64,000 nt of DNA from Hericium rajendrae (taxonomy: Eukaryota > Basidiomycota > Agaricomycetes > Russulales > Hericiaceae): positions 2,356,001 to 2,420,000 of the forward strand of contig CM065884.1 in the NCBI GenBank assembly GCA_033439255.1, written 5' to 3'. A program made the translations under genes and the position numbers. Shown here in pieces: positions 7,133 to 59,823 of this stretch; the stretch's first letter is position 1, and the number at the start of each line of letters is the position of its first letter. The notes beneath the pieces are model-generated. The model saw nothing but the letters and a program-made list of their open reading frames with translations, had not been told where the DNA came from and did not search any database.

Positions 7133-8608
7133 TCACTGGTTCGCACACTGTACACGCGGCTCACCCTCATCTTCCTCCATTGGTTCGTCCATCGCATGCT
7201 GTTGCCGTGGGTCAACATCAACTAGTTCGACCTCCTCCAGATGAATGTGACGCGGGAATTTGGGGATGGGGTGACGTGGTGGAAGAACACGCTCCAGTAG
7301 CGGTATTTTGTCGGGATCAATGTGGTCGGGCCACTGGACTGATATCTTGATGAAGAGGTCGCCTGGTTCGTGATGACGCTGAGACGGCATGCCTTGACCA
7401 TGAATGACTTTGAGGGCATCTTCACATGGCATGAGGGCAAAGTAAAAAAAACTCGAGAAAGTGGTGCTTACCATGCTTGATGACTTCACCCGGTGCGATA
7501 TTCACGATCAATGCACGATCATCCAGGTGTTTGATAGCAAATTGTCCGCCTCCTAAGGCGGTCAATAAATCGATCTGGACGTCAGTGATCAAGTTATTAT
7601 CGTTTCGCTTGAACCGATCGTGAGGTTTTTCCTCAATCACGATGATGACGTCGCCGGGTGTAACTCCCGGGGCTTGATCGCTCTCGCCGTGAAATGTAAT
7701 TGTTTGACCACCCTTCATACCCTTGTCGATGTGCACCTCCAGCATCTTCTTCTCCGATATAACCTTGCGCCCGTTGCAAGTTTTACACTTGTCTTTGTTG
7801 TTGATGATCTCTCCAGTACCAGAGCAATCGTCGCACGGCTGCTGAAGCTGTTGTATCATGGGACCCATCTGCCGTAGGGTCACCTTTACCCCTCGGCCCT
7901 GGCAAGACCCGCACTGCTTGACGGCACCTTCCTTGCCTCCTTTGCCATCGCATTTCGGACAAATGACATTGCGAGTTAAGGCGAGCTTGGTGGTTTTGCC
8001 CTTGTAAAGGTCCTCCAGGGAAACATGTACGCGATGGACGAGGTCCTTACTCTTTCGAGGACCAGAAGTTCTTGAAGGACCGCCCCCGAAGAAGCCGCCT
8101 CCACCAAATAGCTGACTGAAAAGGTCCTGGAGTATGGACTTAGAAAGGGCAACTAGAAATTATCCAAGAAAACGCACCTGCGGATCCATGCCACCCATGC
8201 CGCCCGATTCGGATAAACCTGATTCTCCTCGCGTATCGTAGATAGACCGTTTCTGCGGGTCCGAAAGAATTTCATATCTGCAAGGAGAGTGAAAGAAGAG
8301 ACATGTTAGAAGACAGTTCAGATGTTTTGACGACACTACGTACGCATGGGTGACTTCTTTGAAAAGTTCTGGATCCCCGCCTTTATCTGGGTGTAGTCGT
8401 AAAGCTCTGATAGACAAGACGATGCATGTGTTTGTGCGCTGAGCAATGAGAAAAAAGTATGCCTACTTCTTGCGATACGCCTTTTTCAGGTCGCTATCTG
8501 AAGCGTCCTCTGGTACGTCCAATAATTCATAGAATTTCCTGAGATAAACAATACTCAATCGATTGAGTTTGGTGAGGCGTGAACAAACACACACCTCTCC
8601 TTGACCAT
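7133..8608 (-). CDS. YDJ1: Type I DnaJ (Hsp40) co-chaperone, Ydj1/Mas5-like
   Basis: Stimulates Hsp70 ATPase activity and hands over unfolded clients; acts in the cytosol and on organelle membranes. Exons on the minus strand: 8608-8595, 8538-8467, 8406-8344, 8277-8178, 8126-7472 and 7419-7133; they total 1191 bases, 396 residues, close to yeast Ydj1 (409). Domain order: J domain (residues 1 to about 70, with KFYELLDV and the essential HPD in LHPDKGG), Gly/Phe-rich linker (QLFGGGGFFGGG), four CxxCxGxG-type zinc motifs (CPKCDGKG, CGSCQGRG, CDDCSGTG, CKTCNGRK), two client-binding beta domains, and a C-terminus VQCANQ whose last four residues (CANQ) form a CaaX box, as in Ydj1 (CASQ), implying farnesylation. 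Divergent from MET30 with 277 bases between start codons. No breaks. Confidence 0.95.
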
Positions 8609-17861: not shown

Positions 17862-20793
17862 CATCTGAGAAAACTGAATTTTATATAGCTGCAGGTTACA
17901 TTATGGGTGCTATGACTGAGCTATCAGAGCTATGTAGCTTGCTTATCCAGCTATGTAGAGCTATGAGAGCTTTCATAGCTTCCATAGCTAGTAGTGTCAG
18001 CCATATAGTGTTACCATAGCTTTCATAGCCAACAGTTTCAATTATATAGCACTATCATACACTATCATACTTAGTAAGGTGAGCTATGACTACTATGAGT
18101 ACTACTAGTACTATGTCAGGTCAAGTAGGTACGAAAAATTATAAGTCAAAATTAATCATATTCAATGACATTATTACTACAGTCAAATGTACTACAAGTA
18201 TTGTAATGGAGGTACCTAGTTATATGTGATCTGCAGGCAGGCCATGTGCCGCTGGCTGGGCATGACAAAACATGCACGCACGAGGCGTGGCGGGCCTGCG
18301 TGATGTGGCGGACCTGCATGCGGGAGACGCAGGGATAGGGGGGCCGTATGCAAGTCGTCAGGCTGCAGCGGGCTCATATGCAGAGGATTGGACTGCGGCG
18401 GGTCCGTGAACGAAGGGCGAGGAGGATGCAGAAGGTACGGGGATCATGCACAAGGCGCGGGAGGTGTGCACAAGAGGCGGCAGGTGGCAGGAAGGTGCGT
18501 GAGCATGCGGGAGGCGTGTGGGGTGCGGCGGATATGCTTGAGGTGCAGGCGGCATGCAGTAGGTGGTGCTGTGCGCCGGGCTGGTGCACGATGCATTGAG
18601 GGGCGTGCGCGTGCAAGGCATGGGGCCCATGCACAGGGGGGTCTTCACAAGGCACGGAGGTCGTGCCGACACGGAAGATCTGTGTGCTACACGGCAGACC
18701 CATGCGTGATGCAGCAGGCTTGCGCACCGGCGCCGGAGGCACGAGGCATGCGAGGGACATCGTTGCTTGCCGTGGGCCCATGCACGATGCGGCAAGCCTG
18801 CACGCGAGGTGCAGTGGCTGCACGCGGGAGAGAGGCATGGGGATGCGAGGTGCAGAGTCCACATGTGAGGAGACAGAGTGTGGTGTGCCTGGGTGTTGAA
18901 CACGTGTACTTGGGGGGATGGGTGTGAGCGTGGGATGTTGCGGTGTGCACGGGCATTGTGTGCGTGTCCAGGCTGTTGTGCGCACGTGTTCGAGGCAAGA
19001 GGGGTTGCGCAAGTGCGGTGAGCATGCACGACGTGTCTCTTGGGCACCGCAGTCGTTCAAAATGGCAGCGACACGGTGGGGGTGTTGAGGTGTAGCTTGA
19101 GGCGTGGTGACATGGCGAGAGTGAAGGGAGAACACCCGAGTCCCATTGCCATGGCAACAGGACTCCACGGTGCAGGCATGCACAGATGTTGAGAGCACGG
19201 GCGATGATGTGCATGAGGTGGTATGGCGTGTGTGCATAGTGGGTGGTCGGGTGTGCGAAAACAGGGACCGGGGTGTGTGTGTCGTGGCACATCAGGCGTA
19301 GGGCATTGAGCACGGGCATCAGAGGCGTTGGTGGCAGCATTGGGACAGCGGAAAGGGCGATGGGAAGGGGATAGTGGGGGCGATGGTGCGCGATGGGAAT
19401 TGGGAGCATTGAGATATTGAAAGAATGAGTGTCGCTCGAGAACGAGTGACACTCTGCATTAGTACGAATGAACCCAAAAGAATAATTTTTTTTACTTACC
19501 TACAGCCCTCCCAGTTTACTAGATGCCTGCCCGATCCATCTTGACTGTTGATAGAAGGAAAAGTAAAGCGAGGGGAGTGACGGGAGCTGGAGAGAGACAG
19601 AGAGAGTGAGGGAGGACTGAGCAAATGAGAAGGCTCGATGCGAGTTCGGTGCTTCAGCCACTGAACGAGCAAGTCAAAGTTTTCACGATGTAGCAAATCG
19701 AATAAAATCCCTATAATTACAAAACAAAAAACAGTAGTGTAGAATAGTAATCTACATGGATTGAATGGGCCAAGTATCTACATAATGTAGCAAACAAGAC
19801 CGAACGGCAGAGTCAAAGTTATCACATCTGCCACTTAACCTCTGACGCGGCGCTCAGCAACGCCCAGCAGCCACGATTCTTGGCTTCGCCCAGGATTCGT
19901 ATATAAGGCTTGTGTGACGCGCGTTGCCTCTTGCTCCTAAACCCCCACCATCTCTCTTGTCACGTCGTCCTCGACGTTATCGCTCTCTCCCTTGATGTTG
20001 TTGCTCTCTCTCTCGTTGTTGTTGCTGCCTCTCTCGTCGTTGTTGCTGCCTCTCTCGTCGTCGCTACCTCTCGTCTCGTCGTCACTGCCTACTTTTGGTA
20101 AGTTCTTATTCTTAGTCTCTTATGCCTAATGCTAATACTTTTATACTTGTTATATAGCACTTTTGTATGCTTATCAGGTAAGCTATATTATGTCTTAACA
20201 TTTATGCAGGGTTTAGCTTTCTTGTTAGTTTGGTAAGCCTTATATTATATTTATTATCTTCTAATACTAATGTCTTTTTTTGTTTATATTTTTGCTTTTT
20301 ATAGTTGTTGTAAGTTGGTATCTTTTATATTTATGTAGTGGTCTTTGTAGTGTTAGTTTTTTTTGTAATAAAATTATATGAAGAATATAATAAATTTTAA
20401 GCTCTTATATTTGTGATTAAGATGTATATAGTTATTGAGCTAATAATTTGTTTTAACATTTGAGAACCACATATCTGACAGAAGTAATATAGAGTGGATA
20501 AAAAACTTACTAACTAGGTATATTATAACAATAGTGATATGATATATAGTTAATATAGTTTCTATAGCTATTTTATACTATAATAGCTATGACAGCTATG
20601 ATATCTTATACTCTATGCTATAGCAGCTATGTAGCTTATACTCTATACTATGATAGCTATGACAAGCTATGATAGCTATACATAGATTACTTGACAGCTA
20701 TGAGACTGCTATGTAGAAAAGAGGACAGCTATGGACCTAGGAAAGCTATATAGCTTACATAGCCTTATATACCAGTGGTAAATTCCTCAGATG
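17862..20793. mobile_element. Family P element P1 (CATCTG ends, Plavaka-like), 2.93 kb
   Basis: Starts CATCTGAGAAAACTG and ends (reversed) CATCTGAGGAATTTACC, with a 2-bp target duplication TT on both sides; the minus-strand gene frame continues across it when one TT is removed. End A (left) is followed by AGCTATG-rich sequence and then a GC-rich arm (about 18.23-19.1 kb). End B (right) is preceded by AT-rich sequence. The core is listed separately. No transposase; moved in trans by a Plavaka-type enzyme is inferred from the shared ends with the element at 23564-25541. Confidence 0.88.
19138..20310. other. P1 core: palindrome, splice-site hairpin, TATA box and small exons
   Basis: In order: palindrome 19138-19165 (GAGTCC arms around TTGCCATGGCAA); hairpin 19427-19454 on the minus unit at the acceptor of a 46-base intron (donor GTAAGT at 19499, branch-like TACTAAT, acceptor near 19454); an open frame from ILFDLL near 19705 to that donor (minus); TATATAA 19900-19906 driving the plus unit; a CT-rich first exon ending TTTTG|GTAAGT near 20098; and a late exon with TTTTTGCTTTTT near 20290. 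The two units diverge from about 19.72-19.9 kb. Confidence 0.65.
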
Positions 20794-23563: not shown

Positions 23564-25541
23564 CATCTGGAAAAAGGACTGGTGGTACATAGGCCTATCA
23601 ATACTACCTACGGCACGCTGAGCTACAACCAATCGCCTCACACCGGGAAGCTGCGCTCAAGGCTGCCAGTCTTACTCACGTCGCAGAGCTGTTCTGGAGG
23701 GACTTCAAATATTCTAACATCCACGACACGATCACCCCCGACATCCTCCACCAATTACTACAAGGCCTCCTCCAATATCTTGTAGAATGGATCACATCCA
23801 TCATCGGCATTATTGAGCTTGATGCACGGTTCAAGTGCTTGCCGCATGCTCACAGAGTGCACCTGTTTGCAAACAGAATTAGCAGTCTAACGAGGGTCTC
23901 TGGTGGCGAACATAAAGAGATATGCAAGCAACTGCTTGGGTGCATCATCGGAAAGGCACCAGATCGTGTCATCTGTGCAGCGTGGGCACTTCTCGAATTC
24001 CTCCACCTTGCTGTATACGAGAGCCACTCAGAGACAACGCTTGGATATCTACAGGCCACGTTTGATGAATTTCACAAGAATAAGAATGTTTTCATTGAGT
24101 TAAAGGCTCGCGCAAGTACGTTTTTCAAGTTTATATTTTTCCTCTTTTGTCTTATTGACTGTTCCTTTGTTGTAGAAAGTCACTTAAACTTGCCGAAGCT
24201 TCATTCATTACAGCATTATGTCAACATGATACGCAAACTCAGAACAACTGGCAACTTCAATACGGAGGCCATGGAGCACCTGCACATCGAGTATGCAAAG
24301 GACGTGTATCGGATGACCAACAAGAAGGACTATCTTCAACAGATGGTCTCCTGGCTCGATCGGCGCAAACATATTGCGACATTTAATGTTCATCTTCACT
24401 GACGTCAAAACACGTTGCTGCCATTGCATATTCCACGTAACACTGTCCTTGGGCACATCGTCACAAAGCGGGCCAATCACCGCTCAATATCTTTCCCTCA
24501 TCTTTTTACAGACTATGGAGCTAAGCATTTCACACATGCTCTCAAGAACTTCATAGCTGGATACTGCGAGATTTCAGCTCATGAACGATGGCAAGAACCT
24601 ATCATTATTCTGTTCAATCACGTTCAAGTATGGGACCGAGTTAAATTTTGACTAAAACATCTACAGCTTGATGATGCCCTTGCTGTCATGGATACTGCCG
24701 TAGCAATGCCTTCAATCACAAAAAAGCCTGCTCAGTTTGACACAGTCTTGGTCACTGTTGGAGACGATGCGGAAGAAACTGGTGTCACCGGTATGATTTT
24801 CATTTCTAGATTGTTCCACAATTGGCTCAGACTTTGCAGGTCTTCGTGTTGGTCGGCTGCGCGTCATCTTTCAATTTCCACTCGACTTTGATCAGGCAAT
24901 ATTCCTTTCGAAAAATCTTTCACCACCTGGTCACATGGCCTACATGGAGTGGTATAGCACCTTTACAAGAATGGATGCAAAGCATCGGATGTATCCTGTT
25001 GCTCCGTTGAAGGGCCGCCGAGCTGATGTGTTAATTATTGAGATCACCGATATTAGAAGAAGTTGTATGCTAATTTTAGACTTTGGAGAGACAGCAAATA
25101 GGGCATGGAGTTCGGACAACGTTCTTGATCGCTGCAAATCCTTCTTTGTAAATAATTTTGTCGATAAGCATACCTATCAATCTGTCTATTAACTTATGAC
25201 CATTATATAAGTATGATAGTTTTCAAAGTCAATGATAAGTATATCTACTATGACAAGTGATATAATGAACATAGCATCAATAGAATCTCTACTGAGATAT
25301 ATATGTTATGTGTATGCTATAGCACACATAGAGATCATACCATGGTATATAGTAGTCATAGTTAGCCATAGCTGTCCCTTCTAGGTATATAGCTCTATAT
25401 AGCTTGTACCTACTACTATGAATCATATATAGACTATCATAGAGCTATATAGATGACATAAGTAACTATATAGACTATACAACATTATGAATGCATGTAT
25501 ATCTGAACACTGAGCTCTGTAGAGTTTACTTTTTCCAGATG
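23564..25541 (+). mobile_element. Plavaka-type (CMC) DNA transposon with partial transposase (P0), 1.98 kb
   Basis: Begins CATCTGGAAAAAGGACTGG and ends (reversed) CATCTGGAAAAAGTAAAC, flanked by the 2-bp duplication GC (23562-23563 and 25542-25543). It contains a partial transposase on the plus strand, followed by about 350 bp of AT-rich AGCTATG-type sequence. Its left end (CTGGTGGTACATAG) matches end B of the larger non-autonomous elements (P1, P3, P5), which ties the whole CATCTG family to Plavaka. Confidence 0.88.
23618..25192 (+). pseudogene. Plavaka-family transposase, C-terminal half, degenerate
   Basis: Would cut and paste elements with CATCTG ends. Visible parts in order: TPDILHQLLQGLL (near 23.73 kb), SGGEHKEICKQLLGCIIGKAP, then after an intron at 24116-24175 SHLNLPKLHSLQHYVNMIR and NTEAMEHLHIEYAKDVYRMT (to 24402), and a C-terminal block GHMAYMEWYSTFTRMDA, ITDIRRSCMLILDFG, REWSS-like RAWSSDNVLD and FVNNFVDKHTYQSVY (stop after 25189). 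These blocks and their order match Plavaka transposases I know from mushrooms. The N-terminal half of the usual 900-1000 residues is missing and the frame changes several times, with a stop at about 24402, so it is not functional. The first recognisable residues lie only about 50 bases from the left end, suggesting internal deletion of a longer element. Confidence 0.75.
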
Positions 25542-26867: not shown

Positions 26868-29594
26868 CATCTGAGAAAACTGTTAGAGCTATATATGACT
26901 ATGTTGATTACATAGTTCTCATAGCTCCATAGCTGTCTCCTTTTCTTTATACCTCTATATAGCTATGAGGTCATCTATGTAAAGCTATAGAGCCAAATAG
27001 GACAGCTATAGAGAGCTATGATAGCTATGATAGCTATCATAGTATAAAGTAGCTATGAGAGCTATACTAACTATATGTGATATATATACTATTCACACTA
27101 CAGACTGTATGAATACTAGTTATGTTATCTCAGATTATCAAGACTATGCTAACTTTCTACACTATATTTTATTTATCTCAATTATCTCAAATTTATACTT
27201 AATATTATAGCACAATCAAACCATCAAGAAGAGCAAAGTGATTTAAATCTTATTAGGTATTTTATAACAATAATACAAACTATATAAGTCATTATATAAA
27301 TATAATTTAATACAAATTTATGATAGAGATAACACCAAGGAGATAAGATAAGATGTTAAGATAAGATGTTAAGATAAGATAAAAGAATAAAAGAGATAAG
27401 ATAACAGGAAAAATATACTGAGATTACAAAAAGCGAAAATGAACTACAGATATAAGAACATCAGGCTAAGAAAATAATAAAGATAAGAAAACTTATCTTA
27501 CAAGGCCTACTGTGACTACAAAAAAGCAAAATTAACTAGAAACATAAGAACATTAGTATTAGAAACATAAGAAACATAAGAAACATAAGAGACTTTACCT
27601 TAAAGGCTTAGAAGACAAGAGCAAGAGGCCATAAAAGCAGAAGATGGTGGGGGTTAAAGAGAGAGAGAGGACGTGCATCGCGCATGCCTTATATAGGCGT
27701 TGCGAGCGGGGCCCGAAACGTGGCTGCCGAGCGCCGGGCCGAAGGTTGCCGGGCTCTGCAACAGAGGCTAACTGCCAGATCCGAGTAAGTTGTCTTCGCT
27801 GGCCAGTGGCCTACGGTACATTATCTACGATCATTTCTCATGCAATATTGTTTTATGTACATTCTATAATACTAGTCTTTTTTTCTGATTTAAAATCGAT
27901 TTATTCGATTTGTTGTGCCCGAAAGAACTTGACCGCGCAAGTCGAGTCCTGGCTGAAGCACGACTTGTGCTTTCCACCTCATCACTCCCTCCTCTCTCGT
28001 CTCCAACCCGTACTTCCTCTCTCCGCACTCGATGGTTCGCATCGCTTTGCAGTCAGAAGGGTTAGGAGCCGGGCTGAGGGCATTCAGGTAAGTAAGCACG
28101 GTCTCTCTTATCGTTGTACCGTGCTAATAAAATGAGTATCGCTCGTGCTCTGCATGAGTGATACTCGTTTTCTTTTATTTCTCTGCCTAGCCAGTCACCT
28201 CCACCTCCGCACGACACGCTACCATACCCCGCGCCGACGCTCACCACACCACACCTGCCCCATTCCCTCGATAACGCAGACGACGACGTCCTCGAGTCTC
28301 GTTGCCACGGCAACGAGACTCGTTCAGCGCGCCTCGCTCCACCTCCTGCGCATCGCTGCGTGGCTCCAACAGCCCGCGCCCACCGTCCTGCTCACCCTGT
28401 CGCCGTCCTCATCCCCGCCGCCGTCATTTCCACACCCCACCACATCCCGTTGCCATCCTCGCGCCCCCGCCGCACCCGACACGTCATCGGCACCGTGCGT
28501 TGCCGCAATGCCTGCATACGGCTGCCAGTGCACCTGCACCTGCACCGGTTTGCCCACGCACGGCCCCATAGGTGCACGGGCAGCCCCGCACGTCCGCGCC
28601 AGCGCACGGATGGACGGACACGGCTCCGCGACCACGTCCGCGCCCCTGTGTATGGTCAGGTCCGCGCACGCATGACTGCAGCCATGAACGGACTGCGAGC
28701 GCGCTGCCAGGAGCCTCGCGCGCGGAGCCCGCGATGCGCACACCCCACGGGCCTCGTGCGCCCACCACATGCCTTGCGCTGCCCCGCGAGTCTCGCGCGG
28801 GCCTCGCGCGGCCTGCCGACGTCTCGCACATGCTCGCCGCGCATCGCACGTCCCCAGTACCTCACCTCCGGCACACGGGCCTGCCATGTCATGCACGGGC
28901 TCTGCCATGTCGCGCATTCCCCGCACGCCCGCCTCCCGTGCCTACACATGGGCCCGCTGCCGGTCCCCACTTCGCGCTGCCTTCGACGCCTCGTGCCTCG
29001 CCTCCATGCCTCGCACGCGCGCCCCACTACCCCGAGTGCGGCACCTCTAGCCGCCCACCAACATCTTGCCCCCCCTCGCTCTCCCCCCCGTGCGCCTCTC
29101 ACACGGGCCCGCCGCTCTTCGCGCCCGACTGCCGCGTCGTACACGACTGCCACGCTGCGCCGTGCCTTGTGGGTGTGTGCACCTTGTCGCAGTCCATCAG
29201 TGTGCTTGTACCTGTGCGTGGCCCTACCTGTACATGGTGTGCATGCCTGCAGTATTTATACTTGTAGTGTACTTGTTCTGTAGTAGAATCATACTGAATA
29301 TAAGAAATTTTGACTTTGAATATTTTGCACCAAAGTACCTGGGTGACTTGACATAGTACTAGTAGTACTAATAGTACTCATAGCTCATCTTACTAGGTAC
29401 AATAGTACTATATATTTCAAACTGCTGTCTATGGAAGCTATGGTAGACTATATAACTGACACAGGTAGCTATAGAAGCTATGGAAGCTCTCATAGCTCTA
29501 CATAGCTGGATAAGCAAACTACATAGCTCTGATAGTTCAATAATAGCACCCATAACTTAGCCTGCAGCTATATAAAATTCCATTTTTTCAGATG
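26868..29594. mobile_element. Family P element P2, 2.73 kb
   Basis: Starts CATCTGAGAAAACTG, ends (reversed) CATCTGAAAAAATGG, with the 2-bp duplication TA on both sides (26866-26867, 29595-29596). Orientation is opposite to P1: end B is left, end A (ATATAGCTGCAGG) is right. AT-rich AGCTATG sequence fills both ends. The GC-rich arm spans about 28.17-29.24 kb and gives very long stop-poor frames on both strands (for example 28360-29283) that I do not regard as genes. Confidence 0.88.
27427..28322. other. P2 core: small exon, TATA box, splice-site hairpin, palindrome
   Basis: Minus unit: TATATAAG at 27689-27695, CT-rich first exon, small exons ending with CATTTTCGCTTTTT near 27427-27443. Plus unit: FDLL-type sequence near 27895, donor CAG|GTAAGTAAG at 28088, branch-like GTGCTAAT, acceptor GAG at 28136, hairpin 28134-28166 (GAGTATC / GATACTC), and the near-perfect 30-bp palindrome 28293-28322 centred on GTTGCCACGGCAAC. 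Confidence 0.65.
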
Positions 29595-31108: not shown

Positions 31109-33765
31109 CATCTGAGAAATCTGTTTTTTATATAGTAGCAAGTCCTATTATGGGCCCTATCAGTGAGCTATGAGGGCTATGAACTTGGACTATTTAGCTA
31201 TGTGGAGCTATGGGGCCTATGATAGCCTCTATAGCATGAAGTGTTAAATACATAGGGTGCCATAGCCTCTATAGCTAGGGGTGTCATATACATAGGACTA
31301 TGATACTTACCAAGGGAAACTATGACTACTATGGCTACTATAGTTCTTATGATGGGTCACCTAGGCAGTCAAGACATTTAAGTCCAAAATTTCTTATATT
31401 CAAGGTGTAGACTACTGTAGACAAATCTAATACCATTAAACTAGTAAACGAAGGTTCTGAATAGACCTCGCGCCCTCGCACCTCTTGCGCATCACTATCT
31501 GTGTGTGCGCGGACAGGCGCGCTCTCGCCCGGCCGGTGCATGCTGTCGGGGCAGGGCGACGAAGCCGGGTGCGCGAGCTGTGCGTGGCCGCGCGCGAGCT
31601 GGCATGGCCGTGCGTGGCCGTACGCGCGCGCATGGGGCGAGGCGACCATGTGCGGGGTAAGGCATCGGCGCACGGGCCATGCATGGGACGAGGCGGGGTG
31701 CACGGATCGTGCGTGGCCGCACGCGAGCTGACGCGGCCGTGCCTGGCTGTACGCGCGTGCATAGGGCGAGGCGGCCGTGTGCGGGGCATGGCGTCGACGT
31801 ACAGGCCACGCGCCGGGCGGGGCGGGGTGTCGCGGATCGTGCATGGCCGCGCGCGAGTCAGCACGGTCATGCGCGGCCTATCTCGTGCGCGGGGCGAGGT
31901 GACCGCGCGAGGGTCGTGCGCGGGACGGGGCGTCGGCGCACAGGCCATGCCAGGCCGGGCGGGGTGCGCGAGTCGTGCTGGCCGTGGGCGCGCTCGTGTG
32001 GACCCGCCTGGTCGCGCGCTTGCATGTGGAAGCTGGGGCGGACGTACGCGGGGCATGGCGTCGGCGCACAGGCATGCGCAGGGCGGAGCGAGGTGTCGCG
32101 GATCGTGCGTGGCCGCGTCGCGAGTCGGCGCGGTCTTGCTTGGCCTTGCTCGCGCAGCTCAGACCACGCGGGCTTGCCACCGTGCATGGTCGTGTGCGCC
32201 CAGCCAAGTGCCGCCGCCGCGAGCACGTTGTCGACGGCGAGATGGACCCGCACGAATCTGTTGAGGACGTGCGGGGGTCGTTGAGGGGATCCGAGGGCGC
32301 GGGAGCCGGGCGAACGACGTGTCGCGCCTGTTGCCACGGCAACGAGGCACGACGACGCGGACGCGGACAGCGTTGTCGGAACTCGGAAGGGCGGGGCTGC
32401 AGCGGGCTGGTGGACGTGGACACGGAGTGTCGAAGGGGATGGGGGCGTGGTACGCGCGGTTGCAAGAACGAGAGCACGAGTATCGCTCGTTCACCGAGCG
32501 ATACTCGCTGTGTTAGTACGAGAAGCGAATGATAGACTTTTTTTAACTTACCTGTTAGCCCTCAAGCCATCTAATAAGCCCCTCCCGAGTGTTGAGGACA
32601 GCCGCGTGTATGGAGAGAGAGAGACGAAGGGAGAGATGGATGGAGAGATGGAGGGAGTGTTGCAAGCACAAGTCGCGCGACGACTTTCAGCTGTCGACTG
32701 TCGCGTCTCGCGGTTTCGACTCTAACAAATCAAATAAAATCGATTTAATTCACGAAAAAGATGACAAGATACAGCACATCGGCTGAAATACAATGAATGA
32801 GCTATCTATGTAGCTACTGTACAACATACTCGGAGGTATCGAAATCCACTTAATGGAATCTAACGGCCAGCCTCTGGCACGATGCCCGGCAATGCCCGGC
32901 CCGGTCTCGCCAAGCTATATTTGACGCTCCGATCGCCACGTCTATATAAGACATGCACGACGCGCTTCCTCTCTCTCTTTCTTACCACCACCATCCCCTG
33001 TTTTTCGTCGCGCTCTCTTCTTTTGCTTCAACTTTGTGATGTTCGGTAAGCTGTTATGTTGTTATCATGCTGTTTCATTGTTCACTAACCCTACTGTTCT
33101 TTGTAGACTTATACATTTTCGCTTTTATTATCTTAAGTAAGTCTTATGTTTTTATATATATCTTTACCTTGTATATTAATTTGTTGACTTTGTCTTGTAG
33201 ATTATTTTCGCTTTTTCTTATCTTTGAAGTGAGTCTTATCTTATCTTTTATCTTTAAGTCTATCTTATCTTATCTTCAGTACTATCTTATCTTTTAGTGT
33301 TATTCTGTTTTGTAGTATATTATATTGTAGTAATGTCTGTAATTTGTGCTTAATGTACTTGGATATTGTTTGAAATATAATGCTTTTAAATTTTCGATGT
33401 TTTGAATGTTTCAAATATAATATAGGCTATTCTTATTTTCTTTTTGATAAATTTATAATATTCTATAATTAACATATTTGTCAGAGTTGACATAGAGTGA
33501 ATAGCAGTCTTACTAGCTAGATATGGTATGATATACTATATAGCTGACATAGTCATGATAGCTATGATAGTTACTATATGCTATAGCAGCTATGATAGCT
33601 ATGATAGCTACTGCCTGATGCTATGATAACTATGGTAGCTATCATAGCTCTATATAGATTACCTCACTACTATGAAGGGGCTATGCAGAAAAGAGGACTC
33701 CTATGGCTCTATCAGAGCTATGTAGGATATATAGTACCATATACCACTGGTGCTTTTCTCAGATG
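31109..33765. mobile_element. Family P element P3, 2.66 kb, nested in C1
   Basis: Starts CATCTGAGAAATCTG, ends (reversed) CATCTGAGAAAAGCACC, flanked by the 2-bp duplication AT. The other C copy (46825-50776) is uninterrupted at the corresponding site (GGCTATGCACCCATG), confirming insertion into C1. End A left, GC-rich arm 31.45-32.45 kb, AT-rich end B right. Confidence 0.9.
32326..33228. other. P3 core: palindrome, splice-site hairpin, TATA box and two micro-exons
   Basis: Palindrome 32326-32348 around GTTGCCACGGCAAC. Minus unit: donor GTAAGT at 32551, branch TACTAAC, acceptor CAG at 32508 (44-base intron), and immediately after it the hairpin 32507-32477 (CGAGTATCGCTCG arms). Plus unit: TATATAA 32943-32949, CT-rich first exon ending at 33045 (TTCG|GTAAGC), micro-exon 33107-33136 (30 nt, TAG before, GTAAGT after) and micro-exon 33201-33228 (28 nt), both with ATTTTCGCTTTT. 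Confidence 0.7.
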
Positions 33766-40030: not shown

Positions 40031-41088
40031 TTGTCACCATTGATTCCACCAACCCCTGCTTCCAGACCACTGCACCCTTCCCACTTGGGATCTTTGAGTC
40101 CCTTGGGGACTACCACATTTACACCCTTGCTGGCATCGCCCGGATCCACTTTTCTCACCAAGATGCTGCCACCCACCAGTGGTACTTCGCTGAGCACAAA
40201 GACTTCTCCTACCTCAAACTCATTGACTTCGACGTCGCCAGAGAGGAACACCACTGCCTACACCCAGCCACTCCACCACTCCTCACTGTTGCTCCTCCTA
40301 GTGTTGACTCCCCTCTCACATGCACCGAACCTCTCTTTGTACCAACAGGTATCATCTTCAACACTGTTACCAGGAAGTACTACACATACTGTTCCAACTC
40401 TCGACACCTAGTCGTTGGCTGGAGACCAAACCTAGTAGAAGGAAGAGATCAGTGGTTTTGGCAGGCCAGTAGTGTTTTCATCACTGAACCTGAACTCGCT
40501 CTCTCTCACCAAGTCCTAGAAGCACGTGAGCAAGAACAAGTTACCTAGCTTGCAGTCCTCCGTTCACCACTACCCCCTCGTATCCCAACCCCGATACCAG
40601 TCCCTTCACCTGCTCCACCTGTTGCCACTGTTACATCCACATCCACCATCAACATCAAACCAATCATCATCTCAGCTCCCCCTGTCCAGCCGACCAACGA
40701 CATGTCCAACCCTGAGATCGGCATCAAACCTGCTCCCTTTGAGGGAGATTGTTCCAAGTCCAAGGAATTCCAGCTGCATATTTGCTTATTCCTTCACGCC
40801 AACTCTGTCCAGTATAAAGATGCTACTGCCCAGATCTCCCTCTTCCTCGACCTCTGCCAGGGCCCTATGGCCGACCAGTGGGCCACCCAGCGTGTCGAGG
40901 AGACATCTGAAAAATATACCACTGCTATATTGTTCTATATAATCTATATAGAAGTCATAGTTTCATAGCAATCCCCTTTTATATATAGGACTTTCATAGC
41001 TGAAGAGCAATCTATGGTAAGCTATGTAGTTGAATAGGATAGCTATGCTTAGCTATGGTAGCTATAATAGCTATCAGAGCATAAGGTC

Positions 41089-41487
41089 ATCAGGAACCTT
41101 CAAAACTTTCTGTTTGACCTGCGAGACATCTGACAGTATCTGCATGACCTGCAGCAGTTGCATCAGACACATCAGATGCTCTCAGACAACATCAGCTACT
41201 CTCAGCTAGCTGCAGAATATTTGACCTCAAGATTCAAAAAAGTATCAAGACAGAATGCTCACAGACTGATCAGCACTGATCAGATTCATGTAAATTTTGA
41301 ATATTGAAAACTTTGTTGTATCTAATGATGAGAGTTGGATAACTACTATATCTGCCAATAGTGATCAACTTCAAAATATAAAATCTCTGATCAGAAATTG
41401 TCCTCTAATTAGAGCCTGCAGCTGGATCAGGTCTTGCAGTTGATCAGACTCTGCAGGGTCCATCAGAAAGTTTTGAAGGTTCCTGAT
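41089..41487. mobile_element. 399-bp MITE M3, nested in P4
   Basis: Ends ATCAGGAACCTTCAAAAC and its inverse. Flanks GGTC and GGTA agree at three of four bases. Same length and sequence type as M4 and M6, in the opposite orientation. Confidence 0.88.
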
Positions 41488-41923
41488 GGTATAGCTATGA
41501 TAGCTATACAAGCTATATCAGCTATATCAGCTATATTTTGTATGCTTATTACCATATCATATCTAGCCAATTAGGATTGCTATCTAGCCTATATTATCTC
41601 TGCTTCATATATGATTTAGACTTACTATAAACATTCAATAGAACTTTAAAATTTTCATAGCTTCAACAGGCTAATTATAAATCAAACAACCAACATATCA
41701 GATATTCAAAATAATATATTTTTATTCATATATATATACAGATGCTATACTAAACTACTTAAATATACATATATCATTATATTGATATAAGATATAAACA
41801 TAAGTTAAGCTAACTTTGCTGAACAATATATAAAGCTTACCAAGCATAAGAAAGTCGAAAATTAGTCTGACAAAGATGCCACATCATCAGCATAAGTTAC
41901 AACAAACAGAACTGAAGACTTAC

Positions 41924-42735
41924 TCCAAAGAAGATAAAAAGCGAAAATTTAAGTCTACAGAATCAATACAACAATATATTAATATCAATGAACAATAGAT
42001 AGATACTTACCGAAGACAAAAAAAAACAAAGACAAACGACGAAGAGAGGAAGAAGGGAGAACGAGAGGAGATGGTAGCGGTTGAGAGACAAAAGAGAACG
42101 CGCGTCGTGCGAGCGTTATAAACCTGAGTCTGGGTTTGTCCGGCGGAGCCCAAAATGTGGCTGCCGGATGTCGCGGCCGAGGCTAGCCGTTAGATCTCAT
42201 TAGGTTGGCTTGACTGCCCAAGGAAGTAGAGTAGAGTACATACATATTTAGCTCATTCACTATACTCAAACAAATAATATATACCTTCTGCGTTTTTTTG
42301 GGATTTTAAACGGTTTTATTTGATTTGTTGCAGTCGAAAACGCCAAAGTGCAAGTCGAGTGCTCTGTGGCTGCACTCGACGTGCAACTCTGCGCGTTTCT
42401 TCGCAGTCTCTCCCTCCCCCTCTGACTTCATCTCCCCTCGTCTCCCCTTCCACATCCTCCGTCACGCAGCGCACGTCGTCATCCGATGGTTGGGAGGGCC
42501 AGCAGGAGTGTTGAGGGCCTCAGGTAAGTAAATGTATCATCTCTTTTTCTGTTTTAGTGCTAATAAAACGAGTATTGTTCATGCCAACGAACGATACTCG
42601 TATTTCTTCTCGCAATCATGCCCCGCCCTCACCTTCGACACCCCGCGGCCATGGCCACGAGCCCACCCCATTCCCCTCTCTCGACAATGCCATTGACGAT
42701 GCCAACGTCGAGTCTCATTGCCGTGGCCAAACGTC
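41924..42735. other. P4 core: micro-exon, TATA box, splice-site hairpin, palindrome remnant
   Basis: Minus unit: TTTATAA at 42122-42116, CT-rich first exon, micro-exon 41954-41924 (31 nt, CTGTAG before, GTAAGT after) with AATTTTCGCTTTTT. Plus unit: open frame VLFDLLQSK near 42310 to donor CAG|GTAAGTAA at 42524, branch-like GTGCTAAT, acceptor GAG at 42572, hairpin 42569-42600 (CGAGTATTGTTC / GAACGATACTCG), and a decayed TTGCCGTGGCCAA palindrome at about 42706-42735. Confidence 0.65.
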
Positions 42736-45285
42736 GTACAACGTGCATTCACCCTCCACCACGCCCACAACGCCCAAAGCCGTGCCCACGCACGCATGGC
42801 CACGCACGCCGACGACTGCATGCGCACGGTCGCCGACGACTGCGCCAGCACGTACGCGTGCACACACATGCATGCACGTCGAGGGCCGCCGCGCATGGCC
42901 TTGCCAACACGCAGCCGGTCACCAACGGCCTCGCCTCACCCGCTCGTGGGCCCGCCCCACCTTCCCGTGGCCTCGCGTCTCGCGCCGCCTTCTCGCGGTT
43001 CCGCCCTGCCTTCTCGCGGTCCCGCCCCACCTTCTCGCGGCCACTTGCAGCTGCGGGCGACCCCAACGGCCGCGGACTGGCCCGCCAGCCCACGCACGGT
43101 GCGGGCAGCCGTGCATGGCCCCGCTAGTCCGCGGGCTGTCACGCATGCCTCGCCTTGCCCTCGCACGGCCGCAGATGACCGCGCCAGTGTGTATGCGCAC
43201 GCACGCACAGCGAGTGCCATGGCGCCCGGTCTTGCCGACGCGTGGGTGGTCACCCGTAGCCGCGCCCTCACCTGCTTGCGGCCGCGCCCTTGCCTTCTCG
43301 CAACTGCGCCCCGCCTGCACACGGTTGTGGACGACCGCGCCACGCACGCATGGCACGGGCAGCCGTGCATGGCCTTGCCAGTGTGGGGGCTGTCACGCAC
43401 GGCTCCACACTGCGTATGGCCACAGACGACTGTGCCAGCGCGTGTACGCACGTACGGCCATGCCAGCGCGTGCACGCGCCCATGCACGGGGAGGACAGCT
43501 GCGCATGACCCCATGTGCGCGCACAAGACCACACACGGCGCTGTTTGCGCACACGAGGCCATGCATGCCGGTGACGATGCGCATGCCGGCGACGGCAGTC
43601 CCGACAACGGGCACCACGTTGTCTGCGCGTGCTCTTGTGCTCGCACGCGAGATCTTTAATTAGGGACTTAGTTACTTCAATAATATGTAGTCTGCTTGTA
43701 ATGTCTCAACCCCTAAATTTAAGATTTTTTTTCGGTGTCTATCTCATTGAATATAGCCAGCATAGTAATCATAGGAGCCATAGCTTCCCTTACTAAGTAG
43801 TATAGCTCTATGTATTTGAGACTACTAGCTATAGAGACTATATATTTTAAACTGCCTGCTATGGAGGCTATGGTAGCTGTCATAGCTCTATATAGCTTGA
43901 CAAGTCAAAGCCATAGACTCCATAGCTCACCTATAGAACCCATAGTTTGACCCTTTGCTATATAAAAATCAGATTTTTCAGATGGATCCTTGAGGATGAT
44001 GATCTCATGGCTGCAAATTCATCCCCAGCCCATGTCCCTTGCTATGCCGACCTCACTGCCCTTCGCACTTGCTTCAATTTGGACTTCTCCCCCCTCGATG
44101 ACTCCAAGGATACCTCCCATGCCATCCAGACCCTCCAGATGGGCACGCGCCTGGTCGTCGACTACATCACCGAATTTGAGTCCCTTGCTCCTCGCACTGG
44201 CTACAACGATGTGGCCCTGATTGACTGGTTCCTGCATGGCCTAAACAGCACCCTGCGGGATGATTGCCAGTGCAGCTACCCCACGCCCACCACACTGGTC
44301 GAGTGGAAGGAGAGAGCTTGTGACAGGAATGCTGCTTACCTCATGTGTACCCAGTTCCAGAGTCCCCGCCCTGTGACTGGGCACACCTCGGTGAGCACTT
44401 GCTCCCCTCAGTCCACATCTACTGGCCGATCCCACACAGTTGCTGCTACAGGTGCCCAACTGCCCAAACTCTCAGAGTCTGACTGTGAGCACCTCAGATG
44501 CGAGGGCGGTTGCTTCTGCTGCCACCAGAAGGGCCATGGCTTCTGCGACTGCCCCCTCAACACTGACTCCAACCCCCATGCCCCAATCTAGAAACCAGCT
44601 CTGCCCCAGCAGTAGCTCTAGAAGATGCAGCTGCTGCCCTCGCTGTCCCCACTATCAACAGGTCTATCGCCGACTTATTGTTGCAGTTGAAGGACTTGAG
44701 CGAGGAAGAGAGGGAAGAGGCAAAGGCTACATTGAAGGACATGGTTGAGGGTTTTTAAAGTGCCCTCTGGTCACGTCATCCGTGGGTGGCAAGAAACATT
44801 TCTTTAATCCGTCGAATCACTTCTCTGTACTATCCAACCCCTGTGAGCAATCGTATCCATTGTCTTTGTGCATGTCTGCTATCACACCCAACTGTCAGAC
44901 ACCGTCCATTATGCTCCAGGCCAAGATTATCACTGCCCCGATCAAGAAACAAATCGATGCTGAGGCACTTCTCGATAGTGGTGCAGAAGGCATCATTATG
45001 CACCCCAAGTTTGCCAAGAAACACCAGTTCCCCCTCAAAAAACTCCCTAAACCCTTTCCCGTTTGCAATGTGGACAACTCCAAAAACATCATGGGCTGGG
45101 TCCACTATTCAGTCAACCAGAACATCTGCATTTATGCCAAGGACTCGACATCCTTCCATGAGGAGACAGCTGAGTTCTATCTCATTGACATTGGCAACTA
45201 CGACATCATCCTTGAGACCGATTGGTTACAGGAGCACAACCCTGAAATTGACTGGGTCTCTCATCGTGTCGACATGACTCGCTGC

Positions 45286-56986: not shown

Positions 56987-59823
56987 CATCTGAAAAATCT
57001 GAAATCTACATAGCTGCCAGCCAATGCTATGCCTACTTTTATAGTGCTATGGCTGCTATGTAGTTGGGCTGCATACCTATATAGGACTATGAGAGCTATC
57101 ATAGCTATCATAGCCATGAGTGATAGCTATGTAATACTACATAGTAATAGCTTACTACTATGTCTGCTATGTAACCTATATGCTTTGAGTCTCCCTCTAT
57201 ATGTACTATAGATACTATGTCCAATATCAAGCCCCATAGGCTGCTATGAAATTTCAGGCTGTTAAACAGTCTATAGTTGCTATAAGAATCTATATTTCAA
57301 GCATTATGACACATTATAAGTACAAAGTATAATATCAGATTCAACTACTATAATATGTAGCATACAAAATAATCTAGCACGAGCACACATGAGATTAGCA
57401 GATTCGCGTGTGCTGTCGCTAATGTGTGCAAACTGTGCGCTGGACTGAAAGCCCCACATGCACAAGCCAAAACGGCGATGGACACATTACATGTATCCAC
57501 CTTGTATGTGCTGGCATGGGGTGTGAGCTGTAAGAGACGGTGAGAGTGCACGGCACAGAACAAGCACGGTGACAACATGTGTTGCTGTACACGCGCAGTC
57601 TGCGGGGGTCACAACCATGCACTGGCCGTGCGCTGCTGGGGCCGTGCATGAGGCATGGGGGTCGTGTGCAGGCTGCTTGCCTCGTGCGAGGGCTATGACC
57701 GTGCGTAGGTTGTTGGGTCCACGCGAGGCCAACTGGGACGCTGCACAACACGCGCATGTGCACACGGTCTCGTGGCCATGCGTTGGCAGTGTTCTATGGG
57801 ACCGTGCACATGCAGGCAGGGCCGTACACTCACGCTACTCACTGCTGCGTGCGCGTGGCCATATGTGAGGGTGCGTGCACACGTGCATTCAGGAAAGTGG
57901 GGGCCAGCGGTGCCATATGCAAGCATACACGAACGGGGTGGTGTTGAGGGCTGGCACGCAAAGTCGTGCCCATTGCCATGGCAACGAGCATGACGACGGG
58001 TCGCGGACATGTCAGCACATGCTGCTGAAGCAGACAGCACGTACTGGTGCCCGTGCGGTGAGCTGACATTGGATGGCGGGGGTGCGTACCATACTGTGTT
58101 CGAGCTGCACATGGGTTGCAGGTGATGCGGCAGTGCGTGGAGGGCAGGAACAGATGGTGGGGTGCACGATGCAGGGAGGGAATGTGGGATGTGCGACAGG
58201 CGTAGAAGAAGGTGTTGGCATGTGCATGCCATGGTTGGTCTGTGTGGGCTGATGCAAATGTGTGGCACCGTCCGCTGGCACTGTCATTAGGGGACGTGAG
58301 CATGCATTGGCAGGGCCACATACGTGCCAGCGGAGTTGATGGGGCCACCGTGAGCTGGTGGGGCCCTGCGCATGCGTGCATGCACTGGCCCGCCCGTGGT
58401 GTCCATGGACACGGGCAGGCAAGGGCGTCAGGCAGTGGGTGGTCGGTGCCTGGGGGGTGATGCATGGGCATCATAGGCAACAGAGGTGGCAGTGGGAAGA
58501 GGTGCGGAGGTGCGTGGGGGAGCGACAGGATGTCGAAGACAGCGGGGTGTCGCGGGGAGTAGAGAACTGAAAAGAAATGAGAGTACCACTCGATAATGAG
58601 CAGTACTCTCGAGATTAGCACAGATACAAAGATAAGAGACTCTATTTACTTACCTGATAGCCTTTCCAGTTCCTGCCAAGCCCTTCCGACCTTCGACTTG
58701 AGGAGCGATGAGGGGAGAGAGGAGTAAGTTGAAGAGCAAACGAAGGGATTGTACTGAGTGCTAGTGGAGTCCGAGTCGAACGACGTGACTTTGGTGCATC
58801 AGCAACTGAACGCGCGAGTTTAAACTGTCCCATGCATAGTAAATCAAATAAAATGCTATTAAATTCGAATAAAAATGACAGAGGAGAAATTATTTAGTAC
58901 AGTGAATCGAATGAGCTTAGTAGGTATGTATTGTATCGTATACTACTGGGCAGCAACGGCCACTTATTGAAGTCTACCACTTAGCCCCAGCCACGACTCC
59001 CGGCAGCACCCGGCAGCCACATTTGGGGCTCCGCCGGGCAAACCCGCACTCACCTATATAACCCTCGCACGATGCGCATTCTCTCTCTCTCTTCAACCAC
59101 TACATTCCCCTTTCGCTCTGACTTTTGGGCCTTTCTTCTCTATCTTTGGTAAGTCTTTCTTTGTTAGGTTTGCTGTCCTATGCTGATGTCATTCATATCT
59201 TAGGATTATTCATTTTCGCTTTTTATCACTTCTGGTATGTCTTAAATCTTTTGTCACTGTTGGTTTGTTACTGACCAACCTTTTATTTTGTAGACTATTT
59301 TCGCTTTTTGTAAATTTTGTAAGTCTAGTATACTTATCTTGTGTTTATCTTTTAGTAGTAAGTGTAATGTTTATATCTTTTTGTGATCAGTAGTAGTGTC
59401 TTTGTTTATAATAGCATAATAATATAAATATAATCTTGATGCATTAAACAAAGCCTATATTGGTGTAATCATTTTATTTGGAGTCTTGCTATGTGAATTT
59501 TCAATCAGAATTTATAGTTTCAATAGGCTTTATTGCTTTAATAGATATGTCAGATCTACATATTAAATATAGAATATATAAGTGACATAAGTCTCATAGC
59601 TTTAATAGACACTTATAGCTCTTATAGCTCTACATACTATAGTAGCTGCATAGTCAGCTATCATAGCTATGATAGCACTCCATAGCATCACCCTTGAGCT
59701 TCATAGCACTACATAGCATCTCCCTTTGGCTATGTGGGCTATACAATAAAGGGCAATACTATGAAGCTAGGAGATCTATGTAGACTTTATAGAGCTATGT
59801 ACCACTGGCAATTTTTTCAGATG
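56987..59823. mobile_element. Family P element P5, 2.84 kb, nested in G2
   Basis: Starts CATCTGAAAAATCTGAAATC, ends (reversed) CATCTGAAAAAATTGCCAG, flanked by the 2-bp duplication CT. End A left, GC-rich arm about 57.4-58.56 kb, end B right. Confidence 0.9.
57963..59318. other. P5 core: palindrome, splice-site hairpin, TATA box and two micro-exons
   Basis: Palindrome 57963-57997 (GTCGTGC arms around TTGCCATGGCAAC). Minus unit: open frame ILFDLLCMG near 58845 to donor CAG|GTAAGT at 58653, branch-like GTGCTAAT, acceptor GAG near 58608, hairpin 58608-58581 (GAGTACTGCTC / GAGTGGTACTC). Plus unit: TATATAA 59055-59061, CT-rich first exon ending at 59148, micro-exon 59204-59234 (31 nt) and micro-exon 59294-59318 (25 nt), both with ATTTTCGCTTTTT. 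Confidence 0.7.

What the first reader, a model, noticed from the sequence alone, without database searches (positions are those of the whole stretch)
32477..32554. A covarying hairpin placed exactly at a 3' splice site in all five P elements
The opposite transcription unit has a 44-49 nt intron (GTAAGT donor, TACTAAC or GTGCTAAT branch) whose acceptor abuts or overlaps a hairpin: 19427-19454, 28134-28166, 32477-32507, 42569-42600 and 58581-58608. Stems read GAGTGTC/GACACTC, GAGTATC/GATACTC and GAGTAC/GTACTC, so paired positions change together while pairing is kept. Covariation at a splice site points to an RNA structure controlling splicing or marking the transcript, or to a protein-bound DNA palindrome.
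Basis: partly seen in the sequence, partly recalled or inferred. Interest (0 to 1): 0.88.

Follow-up and report, generated by a model that had tools for sequence, protein, structure and literature searches.

The report
Mobile fungal introns with conserved hairpins
A family of several hundred mobile DNA pieces in a mushroom genome carries an intron with a strongly conserved RNA-type hairpin just after the branch point, probably a built-in guide that decides where the spliceosome cuts.

Summary
All five hairpins are real (none in 100 shuffles) and not local: 550 places with branch motif plus hairpin lie in the same 46.8-Mb genome, none with the backwards control. They sit in 2.6-3.1 kb elements without detectable domains, with CATC..GATG inverted ends and 2-bp target duplications (21 of 22), close to published PlavakaB ends (PMC12730594 passages). 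In 47 of 47 loci chosen by flanking sequence alone the branch motif and hairpin are present. Over a 45-copy alignment RNAalifold finds only this hairpin: 13 pairs, 7 with double-sided change. [quoted passage not shown] Yeast has such 'downstream stems'; here a transposon spreads one. RNA rather than DNA action is favoured but not proven: the sense-strand G.U excess is modest and I had no transcript data. Verdict: real, conserved, plausible mechanism, new variant of a known kind.

The parts
17862..20793 (-). element E1 (sense unit on minus strand), TSD TT (plus strand)
19427..19454 (-). E1 hairpin, 3 nt after branch motif
19458..19499 (-). E1 donor (GT at 19499) to branch motif (19462-19458)
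26868..29594 (+). element E2, TSD TA
28088..28128 (+). E2 donor (GT at 28088) to branch motif (28124-28128); also holds a GCACGGT/ACCGTGC stem
28134..28166 (+). E2 hairpin, 5 nt after branch motif
28167..28190 (+). E2 pyrimidine-rich tract and likely acceptor TTCTCTGCCTAG (24 nt after hairpin)
31109..33765 (-). element E3, TSD AT; 99.9% identical over 2,659 bp to another copy (L027)
32478..32506 (-). E3 hairpin, 5 nt after branch motif
32512..32551 (-). E3 donor (GT at 32551) to branch motif (32516-32512)
32407..32477 (-). E3 stretch without AG up to the first AG (CACGTCCACCAG), candidate acceptor
40904..43984 (+). element E4, TSD GA
42524..42564 (+). E4 donor to branch motif (42560-42564)
42570..42599 (+). 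E4 hairpin, 5 nt after branch motif
42600..42661 (+). E4 stretch without AG up to the first AG (GAG, a weak acceptor)
56987..59823 (-). element E5, TSD CT (plus strand)
58581..58608 (-). E5 hairpin, 5 nt after branch motif
58614..58653 (-). E5 donor (GT at 58653) to branch motif (58618-58614)
58567..58580 (-). E5 pyrimidine tract and likely acceptor TCATTTCTTTTCAG (14 nt after hairpin)

Best explanation
The palindrome is an RNA stem-loop in an intron of the sense transcript of a non-autonomous PlavakaB-like DNA transposon. It forms a few nucleotides (5, in some copies 3) downstream of the branch point, inside the intron. It pairs up the AG dinucleotides closest to the branch point and loops about 30 nt out, so that the spliceosome passes over them to a U-rich tract and an AG further downstream. 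Shown from sequence: the hairpin, its conservation together with the branch motif, covariation, position, the U-rich and AG-poor stretch after it. Inferred: that the unit is transcribed and spliced, that the acceptor is downstream, and that pairing in RNA is what is selected. The near-invariant letters GAGT..ACTC suggest a sequence-reading factor in addition to structure (inference).
For: In 47 of 47 loci picked by BLAST with queries that end before branch motif and hairpin, both are present (at least 9 of 11 Watson-Crick pairs); 42 of 47 have a GGTRAG donor at the right distance. In 23 unfiltered representatives the fully invariant columns are CTAA, hairpin letters and two single pyrimidines beyond it; the donor is conserved at 90% or more. 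RNAalifold over the 473 columns of 45 copies picks only this hairpin, 13 bp, 7 pairs with both sides changed; 97.8% of cells paired, 0 of 500 shuffles as high, slid controls 24-50%. On a tree of 90 copies stem pairs 1-6 and 9-10 changed 0-2 times per side (pair 11: 5 and 1; CpG pairs 7 and 8: 6-7) against a mean of 8.5 in 228 flanking columns. Of 18 loci picked by the hairpin alone (six from one near-identical subfamily), 18 have a GGTRA[AG] donor 44-54 nt upstream and 17 a branch-like motif. Loop length varies from 4 to 11, while the branch gap is 5 nt in 172 and 3 nt in 24 of 200 (the pattern allowed 2-6). The first 10 nt after the 11-bp arms, whose first bases belong to the outer stem, are 52% T against 16-18% at 100-600 nt. 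AG:TG is 5:53 in the first 60 nt after it against 330:596 at 200-600 nt, 23 representatives, p=5.8e-6. YAGs 14, 21 and 24 nt after the hairpin in 3 of 23 representatives give hairpin-subtracted branch-to-AG distances of 19-29 nt, near the 17.5-nt median of hairpin-less units. RNA fold z-scores -7.65, -4.37, -2.39. At CpGs, sense C>T (keeps G.U) against G>A (gives A.C) is 15:4 in the hairpin and 41:43 in flanks, p=0.02.
Against: No transcript evidence. The G.U excess is weak: tree events 19 G.U against 12 A.C, p=0.28, and 12 against 11 at the CpG pairs 7 and 8; pairs 7+8 genome-wide 101 against 58, falling to 86 against 58 once a family of about 16 copies (recognised by match length) is counted once, with further related copies not removed; among 69 imperfect stems sense RNA is more stable in 39, antisense in 30. 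AG avoidance is not AG-specific: GG and TA are also depleted, and AG stays below expectation from 150, 250 and, less, 300 nt on. In 20 of 23 representatives the first AG is 62-264 nt away and 10 of the 23 are RAG rather than YAG; in S. pombe spacings of 30 nt or more were poorly spliced in one reporter (PMC9508853). Pure structure would not explain near-invariant letters at pairs 1-4 and 10. The 90- and 45-copy sets required donor, branch motif and 9 of 11 pairs, which inflates their paired fraction and makes their donor and branch invariance circular; only one search is free of that.
Confidence: 0.56

Rival explanations
1. A protein-bound DNA palindrome: two inverted copies of a GAGTnnYRYTCG half-site bound by a host or transposon factor that regulates the element; the arms co-vary because both half-sites follow the same binding specificity.
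For: Letters, not just pairing, are conserved; pair types A-T, G-C and C-G occur at pair 5; other palindromes, such as an RFX-like X-box GTTGCC..GGCAAC (likeness recalled), occur in some of the same elements; G.U/A.C asymmetry is weak.
Against: Spacing between the 11-bp arms varies over 4-11 nt in odd and even steps, unusual for a dimer site. In the window only 3 half-sites lie outside the hairpins, about what base frequencies give (about 4, worked out by hand). The place relative to the branch motif is nearly fixed, which a DNA site would not need.
Confidence: 0.2
2. One reading: the acceptor is the AG at the hairpin foot, so the stem masks or switches the acceptor itself (for example a temperature- or protein-controlled alternative 3' splice site).
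For: The AG at stem pairs 2-3 shows no change in 90 copies, 5-8 nt after the branch motif; branch-to-acceptor distances of 7 nt are common in Hypoxylon stwintrons (PMC9024468 passages). E1 has a CAG at the foot and no AG for more than 260 nt beyond the hairpin.
Against: There is no pyrimidine tract before the foot; the U-rich tract is after the hairpin. Hairpin-less units in the same DNA mostly have their first YAG at 17-28 nt (quartiles). A GAG acceptor buried in a 13-bp stem would be poor (inference).
Confidence: 0.16
3. No function: the palindrome persists by shared ancestry and is kept symmetric by template-switch correction of DNA palindromes during replication, which copies a mutation from one arm to the other.
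For: Such correction makes double changes without selection (recalled); most single changes are CpG decay.
Against: It does not explain conservation of both arms far beyond the flanks, the joint conservation with the branch motif in unfiltered loci, or the nearly fixed branch gap.
Confidence: 0.08

Closest known systems
Downstream stems of Saccharomyces cerevisiae introns (PMC12350175, passages; Deshler and Rossi 1991, Gahura 2011 and Meyer 2011 seen only in the reference list of PMC9508853)
   Different: In yeast such stems lie in individual host introns (21 of 88 probed); here one sequence-conserved stem, mostly 5 nt from the branch motif, is found at 550 places of one basidiomycete genome, carried by a transposon in the copies examined.
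Branchpoint-distant introns of Schizosaccharomyces pombe (PMC9508853, passages)
   Same: Branch-to-acceptor segments predicted to fold; complementary mutations that regain the fold rescued splicing of rap1 intron 2.
   Different: Host genes, differing structures; no repeated conserved hairpin in the passages read.
Introner-like elements and sister stwintrons of filamentous ascomycetes (PMC9024468, passages)
   Same: Repeated fungal introns with predicted hairpins.
   Different: There the intron itself is the repeated unit; here the intron is a small part of a 2.6-3.1 kb transposon with inverted ends and 2-bp target duplications.
PlavakaB DNA transposons (PMC12730594, passages)
   Same: Ends CATCA..TGATG and 2-bp target duplications; Plavaka transposase matches are abundant in this genome.
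   Different: No transposase domain found inside these elements; many ends read CATCTGA..TCAGATG; the passages read mention no hairpin intron.

Membership tests
PlavakaB transposon (non-autonomous) | termini 5'-CATCA..TGATG-3' | tested here: inconclusive
   6 of 22 elements (L019-L023, L015) have CATCA at the left end, 16 have CATCT; all 22 begin CATC and end GATG, but ends were sought with such motifs, one mismatch allowed; published rule from PMC12730594 passages
PlavakaB transposon (non-autonomous) | 2- or 3-bp target site duplication | tested here: met
   21 of 22 elements have equal 2-bp flanks, chance rate 0.058
PlavakaB transposon (non-autonomous) | encodes, or is moved by, a Plavaka transposase | tested here: inconclusive
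   no Pfam hit in 8 ORFs of window elements; 132 PF18759 matches in the genome without general linkage to hairpins; mobilisation not testable here
[quoted passage not shown]
   13-bp stem after the branch motif; acceptor position inferred only
Yeast-type downstream stem | forms in RNA and affects acceptor choice | not testable with these tools
   needs RT-PCR, probing or reporters
Introner-like element | the intron is itself the dispersed unit, inserted in host genes | tested here: not met
   the repeat unit is a 2.6-3.1 kb element with its own ends
Drosophila-type P element | 8-bp target duplication and P/THAP transposase (recalled) | tested here: not met
   2-bp duplications; no Pfam domain in 8 ORFs of window elements

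The most novel reading that the evidence does not exclude
A transposon-borne class of structured spliceosomal introns: one hairpin, conserved in letters as well as shape and read by a trans-acting factor, controls acceptor choice in hundreds of mobile non-coding transcription units and has been duplicated within some elements (two tandem hairpin introns in L024). It could be a splice switch by which the element controls its own RNA, or that of genes it lands in.
Probability: 0.27. Interest if true: 0.82.

Novelty: new variant of a known kind. Interest (0 to 1): 0.57.

Why it matters
Structures between branch point and acceptor are known from individual yeast introns; a mobile family offers hundreds of natural variants of one such structure, with its subfamilies, spacers and acceptors, so that the rules of 3' splice site choice in an intron-rich fungus become directly testable. 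It also asks why a transposon without detectable coding capacity keeps a branch site and a hairpin more strictly than the sequence around them.

Tried and rejected
Tried: (1) A decisive RNA-versus-DNA test from G.U against A.C counts. It leans to RNA but is weak once related copies are counted once. (2) Linking hairpins to Plavaka transposase genes: I compared 32 of the 43 PF18759 matches on contigs 1-5 (the 11 left out are second pieces of listed genes) with the 200 listed hairpins; 2 of 32 have one within 3 kb, median 18.8 kb. One contrary case on contig 7: the hairpin of L027 (2314147, plus) lies 2.1 kb before a Plavaka match on the same strand (2316229). No autonomous partner was identified. 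(3) Coding potential after the hairpin: 15 of 15 gap runs in one group and 85 of 119 in another are not multiples of three, and 8 ORFs have no Pfam domain; rejected. (4) Known RNA family: no Rfam match at gathering score in the window. (5) Solitary half-sites as DNA binding sites: 3 in the window. (6) The X-box palindrome as a second constant part: its motif was found in 10 of 24 representatives. (7) An AG count before the stem was badly defined (it counts the A that joins the stem G) and is not used.

Rows dropped: of 147 unique donor-branch contexts, the 90 with at least 9 of 11 Watson-Crick pairs were used; the other 57 are mostly hairpin-less units, many of the opposite transcription unit, but include degraded or cut copies (L007 minus, L018 minus, L047, L052). 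L001, L003 and L009 fell out because donor or branch motif did not match the filter. The 45 rows are those of the 90 that are no more than 90% similar to an earlier row.

Full report
WHAT IS THERE. The window is bases 2,356,001-2,420,000 of contig 7 of a 46.8-Mb, 19-contig genome. The best named matches of an F-box/WD40 exon are from Dentipellis (67% identity), then Bondarzewia and Artomyces (65%), that is, an Agaricomycete probably near Russulales (placement recalled). A pattern for the hairpin with free pairs finds exactly the five reported places and none in 100 shuffles. Each is 3 or 5 nt after a CTAAC/CTAAT motif that begins 35-37 nt after the GT of a GGTAAGT donor on the same strand.

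THE CARRIER. Of six 10-kb stretches compared with a seventh, four align over about 2.7 kb and no further; two are partial. Left ends read CATCAGATAAA, CATCTGAGAAA or close variants, right ends the near-inverse. Of 22 copies with both ends found, 21 have equal 2-bp flanks (chance rate 0.058) and lengths are 2.6-3.1 kb. The five window elements are 17862-20793, 26868-29594, 31109-33765, 40904-43984 and 56987-59823. PlavakaB transposons are described with 2- or 3-bp duplications and CATCA..TGATG ends (PMC12730594, passages), and Plavaka transposase matches are common here (132 for PF18759; one fragment at window 23593-24402). The window elements show no domain in 8 ORFs and the part after the hairpin has frame-breaking gaps. 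I call them non-autonomous PlavakaB-like elements; membership is open where the ends read CATCT. E3 is 99.9% identical over 2,659 bp to a copy elsewhere (L027) whose flanks do not align, so the family moved recently.

THE HAIRPIN ACROSS THE GENOME. Patterns anchored on the branch motif give 223 (CTAAC) and 327 (CTAAT) places, 550 in all, with no match of the backwards controls. The patterns fix GAGT/ACTC and pair 10, allow only transitions at pairs 7-9 and a branch gap of 2-6. In the 200 listed copies (the first 100 of each search) pair 5 is A-T 158, G-C 23, C-G 18, G.T 1; pair 6 T-A 185, C-G 15; pair 7 C-G 169, T-A 11, T.G 9, C.A 11; pair 8 G-C 165, A-T 5, G.T 21, A.C 9; the loop between 11-bp arms is 4-11 nt. 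The least biased test uses the 47 loci L056-L102, chosen by BLAST with queries that include the donor but end before branch motif and hairpin: all 47 have a CTRAY motif just before a stem with at least 9 of 11 Watson-Crick pairs, and 42 also have a GGTRAG donor 38-66 nt upstream. Aligned without filter, 23 representatives have as fully invariant columns CTAA, hairpin letters, one T and one C beyond the hairpin; the donor is conserved at 90% or more.

COVARIATION. Forty-five copies (no two above 90% similar, taken from the 90 that passed a filter for donor, branch motif and 9 of 11 pairs) were aligned. RNAalifold over the 473 columns predicts 13 pairs, all of them this hairpin, with 7 pairs changed on both sides. 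Paired cells 97.8% (shuffled 93.1%), covariation score 0.213 (shuffled 0.131), 0 of 500 shuffles as high; slid versions pair 24-50%. Part of the paired fraction follows from the filter.

RATES. On a tree of the 90 copies built from the DNA upstream of the hairpin, flanking columns changed 8.5 times on average; stem pairs 1-6 and 9-10 changed 0-2 times on each side; pairs 7 and 8, a CpG on both strands, 6-7 times on each side; pair 11, 5 and 1. Inferred events over 11 pairs: 19 from Watson-Crick to G.U (sense), 12 to A.C, 5 double changes that keep Watson-Crick pairing, 1 other mismatch and 1 step from G.U to Watson-Crick.

RNA OR DNA. If RNA pairing is selected, sense G.U should outlive A.C. 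Tree events: 19 against 12 (p=0.28), of which 12 against 11 at the CpG pairs 7 and 8 and 7 against 1 elsewhere. Genome counts: pair 8, 62 against 26; pair 7, 39 against 32; together 101 against 58, or 86 against 58 after counting a family of about 16 copies once (p=0.02). Within four clusters (33 copies) CpG decay is symmetric in flanks (C>T 41, G>A 43) and skewed in the hairpin (15 and 4; p=0.02). Among 69 imperfect stems 39 are more stable as sense RNA and 30 as antisense. The direction is consistent and the strength modest. The variable loop, the nearly fixed place after the branch motif and the low number of single half-sites in the window (3) speak further for a folded strand.

WHERE IS THE ACCEPTOR. 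Fifty hairpin-less donor-branch units in the same DNA, many of them related copies of the opposite transcription unit, have the first YAG at a median of 17.5 nt after the branch motif (quartiles 17 and 28). In the sense unit only 3-5 nt separate branch motif and stem. After the 11-bp arms T makes up 52% of the first 10 nt (its first bases belong to the outer stem) and 28% of the next 10, against 16-18% beyond 100 nt. In 23 representatives AG is seen 5 times in the first 60 nt against 25 expected from composition and 30 GA; AG:TG there is 5:53 against 330:596 further on. The same stretch is also poor in GG and TA, and AG stays below expectation 150-300 nt on, so this is support rather than proof of an AG exclusion zone. 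Three of 23 representatives (E5, E2 and one unit of L024) have a pyrimidine tract and YAG at 14-24 nt; the others have their first AG at 62-264 nt, 10 of the 23 being RAG. I conclude that the hairpin is most likely intron-internal. E1 (CAG at the foot; first AG beyond the hairpin at 264 nt, 7.7 AG expected by composition over that stretch) is the best case for a foot acceptor.

KNOWN PARALLELS. S. cerevisiae has 'downstream stems' in 21 of 88 probed introns, some hiding cryptic acceptors (PMC12350175, passages). In an S. pombe reporter, branch-to-acceptor spacings of 30 nt or more were poorly spliced even in wild type, and in rap1 intron 2 complementary mutations that regain a fold rescued splicing (PMC9508853, passages). 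Repeated fungal introns with hairpins are known as introner-like elements and sister stwintrons (PMC9024468, passages). Searches for Plavaka with target duplications or introns and for hairpin introns in fungi and transposons (for some only 20 of 126 and 15 of 1,559 papers were listed) showed no title or abstract start describing a transposon-borne conserved hairpin after the branch point; the library lacks most subscription journals.

DUPLICATED HAIRPIN INTRONS. In L024 (minus strand) two donors 360 nt apart are each followed by a stem after the branch region, which is degenerate in the second, and a third donor follows without one. Same-strand hairpins 141-164 bp apart occur at C1:4322228/4322392 and C3:1688171/1688312; their DNA could not be fetched.

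VERDICT. A real, strongly conserved and mobile hairpin, linked to an intron. The most likely role is steering of 3' splice site choice in RNA (0.56). What would settle it is transcript data and a compensatory-mutation reporter.

Noticed in passing
L024 minus strand, donors at 8519 and 8879 of the reversed locus: Two donors 360 nt apart, each followed by a GTACTGC-type stem after the branch region, then a third donor without one: hairpin introns can be duplicated within one element.
   Followed up: partly
window 28301-28314, 32330-32343, 19145-19158, 57972-57985: X-box-like palindromes GTTGCC..GGCAAC (likeness to RFX sites recalled), in some copies extended to 13-14 bp arms, downstream of the hairpin in some but not all subfamilies.
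   Followed up: partly
window 27940-27970 and equivalents upstream of the donor: A second possible hairpin with a conserved GTGGCTGAAGCAC-like core and arms that differ between subfamilies but look complementary (by eye; RNAalifold did not pick it).
   Followed up: no
window 28095-28126: E2 subfamily: GCACGGT/ACCGTGC stem between donor and branch motif (in the fold), like the zipper stems of yeast introns.
   Followed up: no
opposite unit, e.g. window 33120-33215; L019 4350-4365: Recurring motif TTTCGCTTTTT (or its inverse) beside ordinary splice signals in the divergent transcript, possibly a micro-exon.
   Followed up: partly
C4:1896682/1897294, C4:1920584/1921196, C1:4794260/4794689: Divergent pairs of hairpins 429-612 bp apart on opposite strands: in some elements both transcription units seem to carry a hairpin intron (seen in DNA only for the C1 pair).
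   Followed up: partly
window 31109-33765 and L027: Two copies 99.9% identical over 2,659 bp with non-matching flanks: very recent movement. The L027 copy lies 2.1 kb before a Plavaka match.
   Followed up: yes
window 20573-20662, 27004-27065, 33514-33655, 41490-41536: Degenerate AGCTATGATAGC repeats towards the ends of the elements, possible transposase sites.
   Followed up: no
window 12187-12486/16811-17110 and 48588-48887/52915-53214 (inverted copy 41088-41488): Long direct repeat pairs, possibly retrotransposon LTRs; a gag-like ORF lies at 43926-44591.
   Followed up: no
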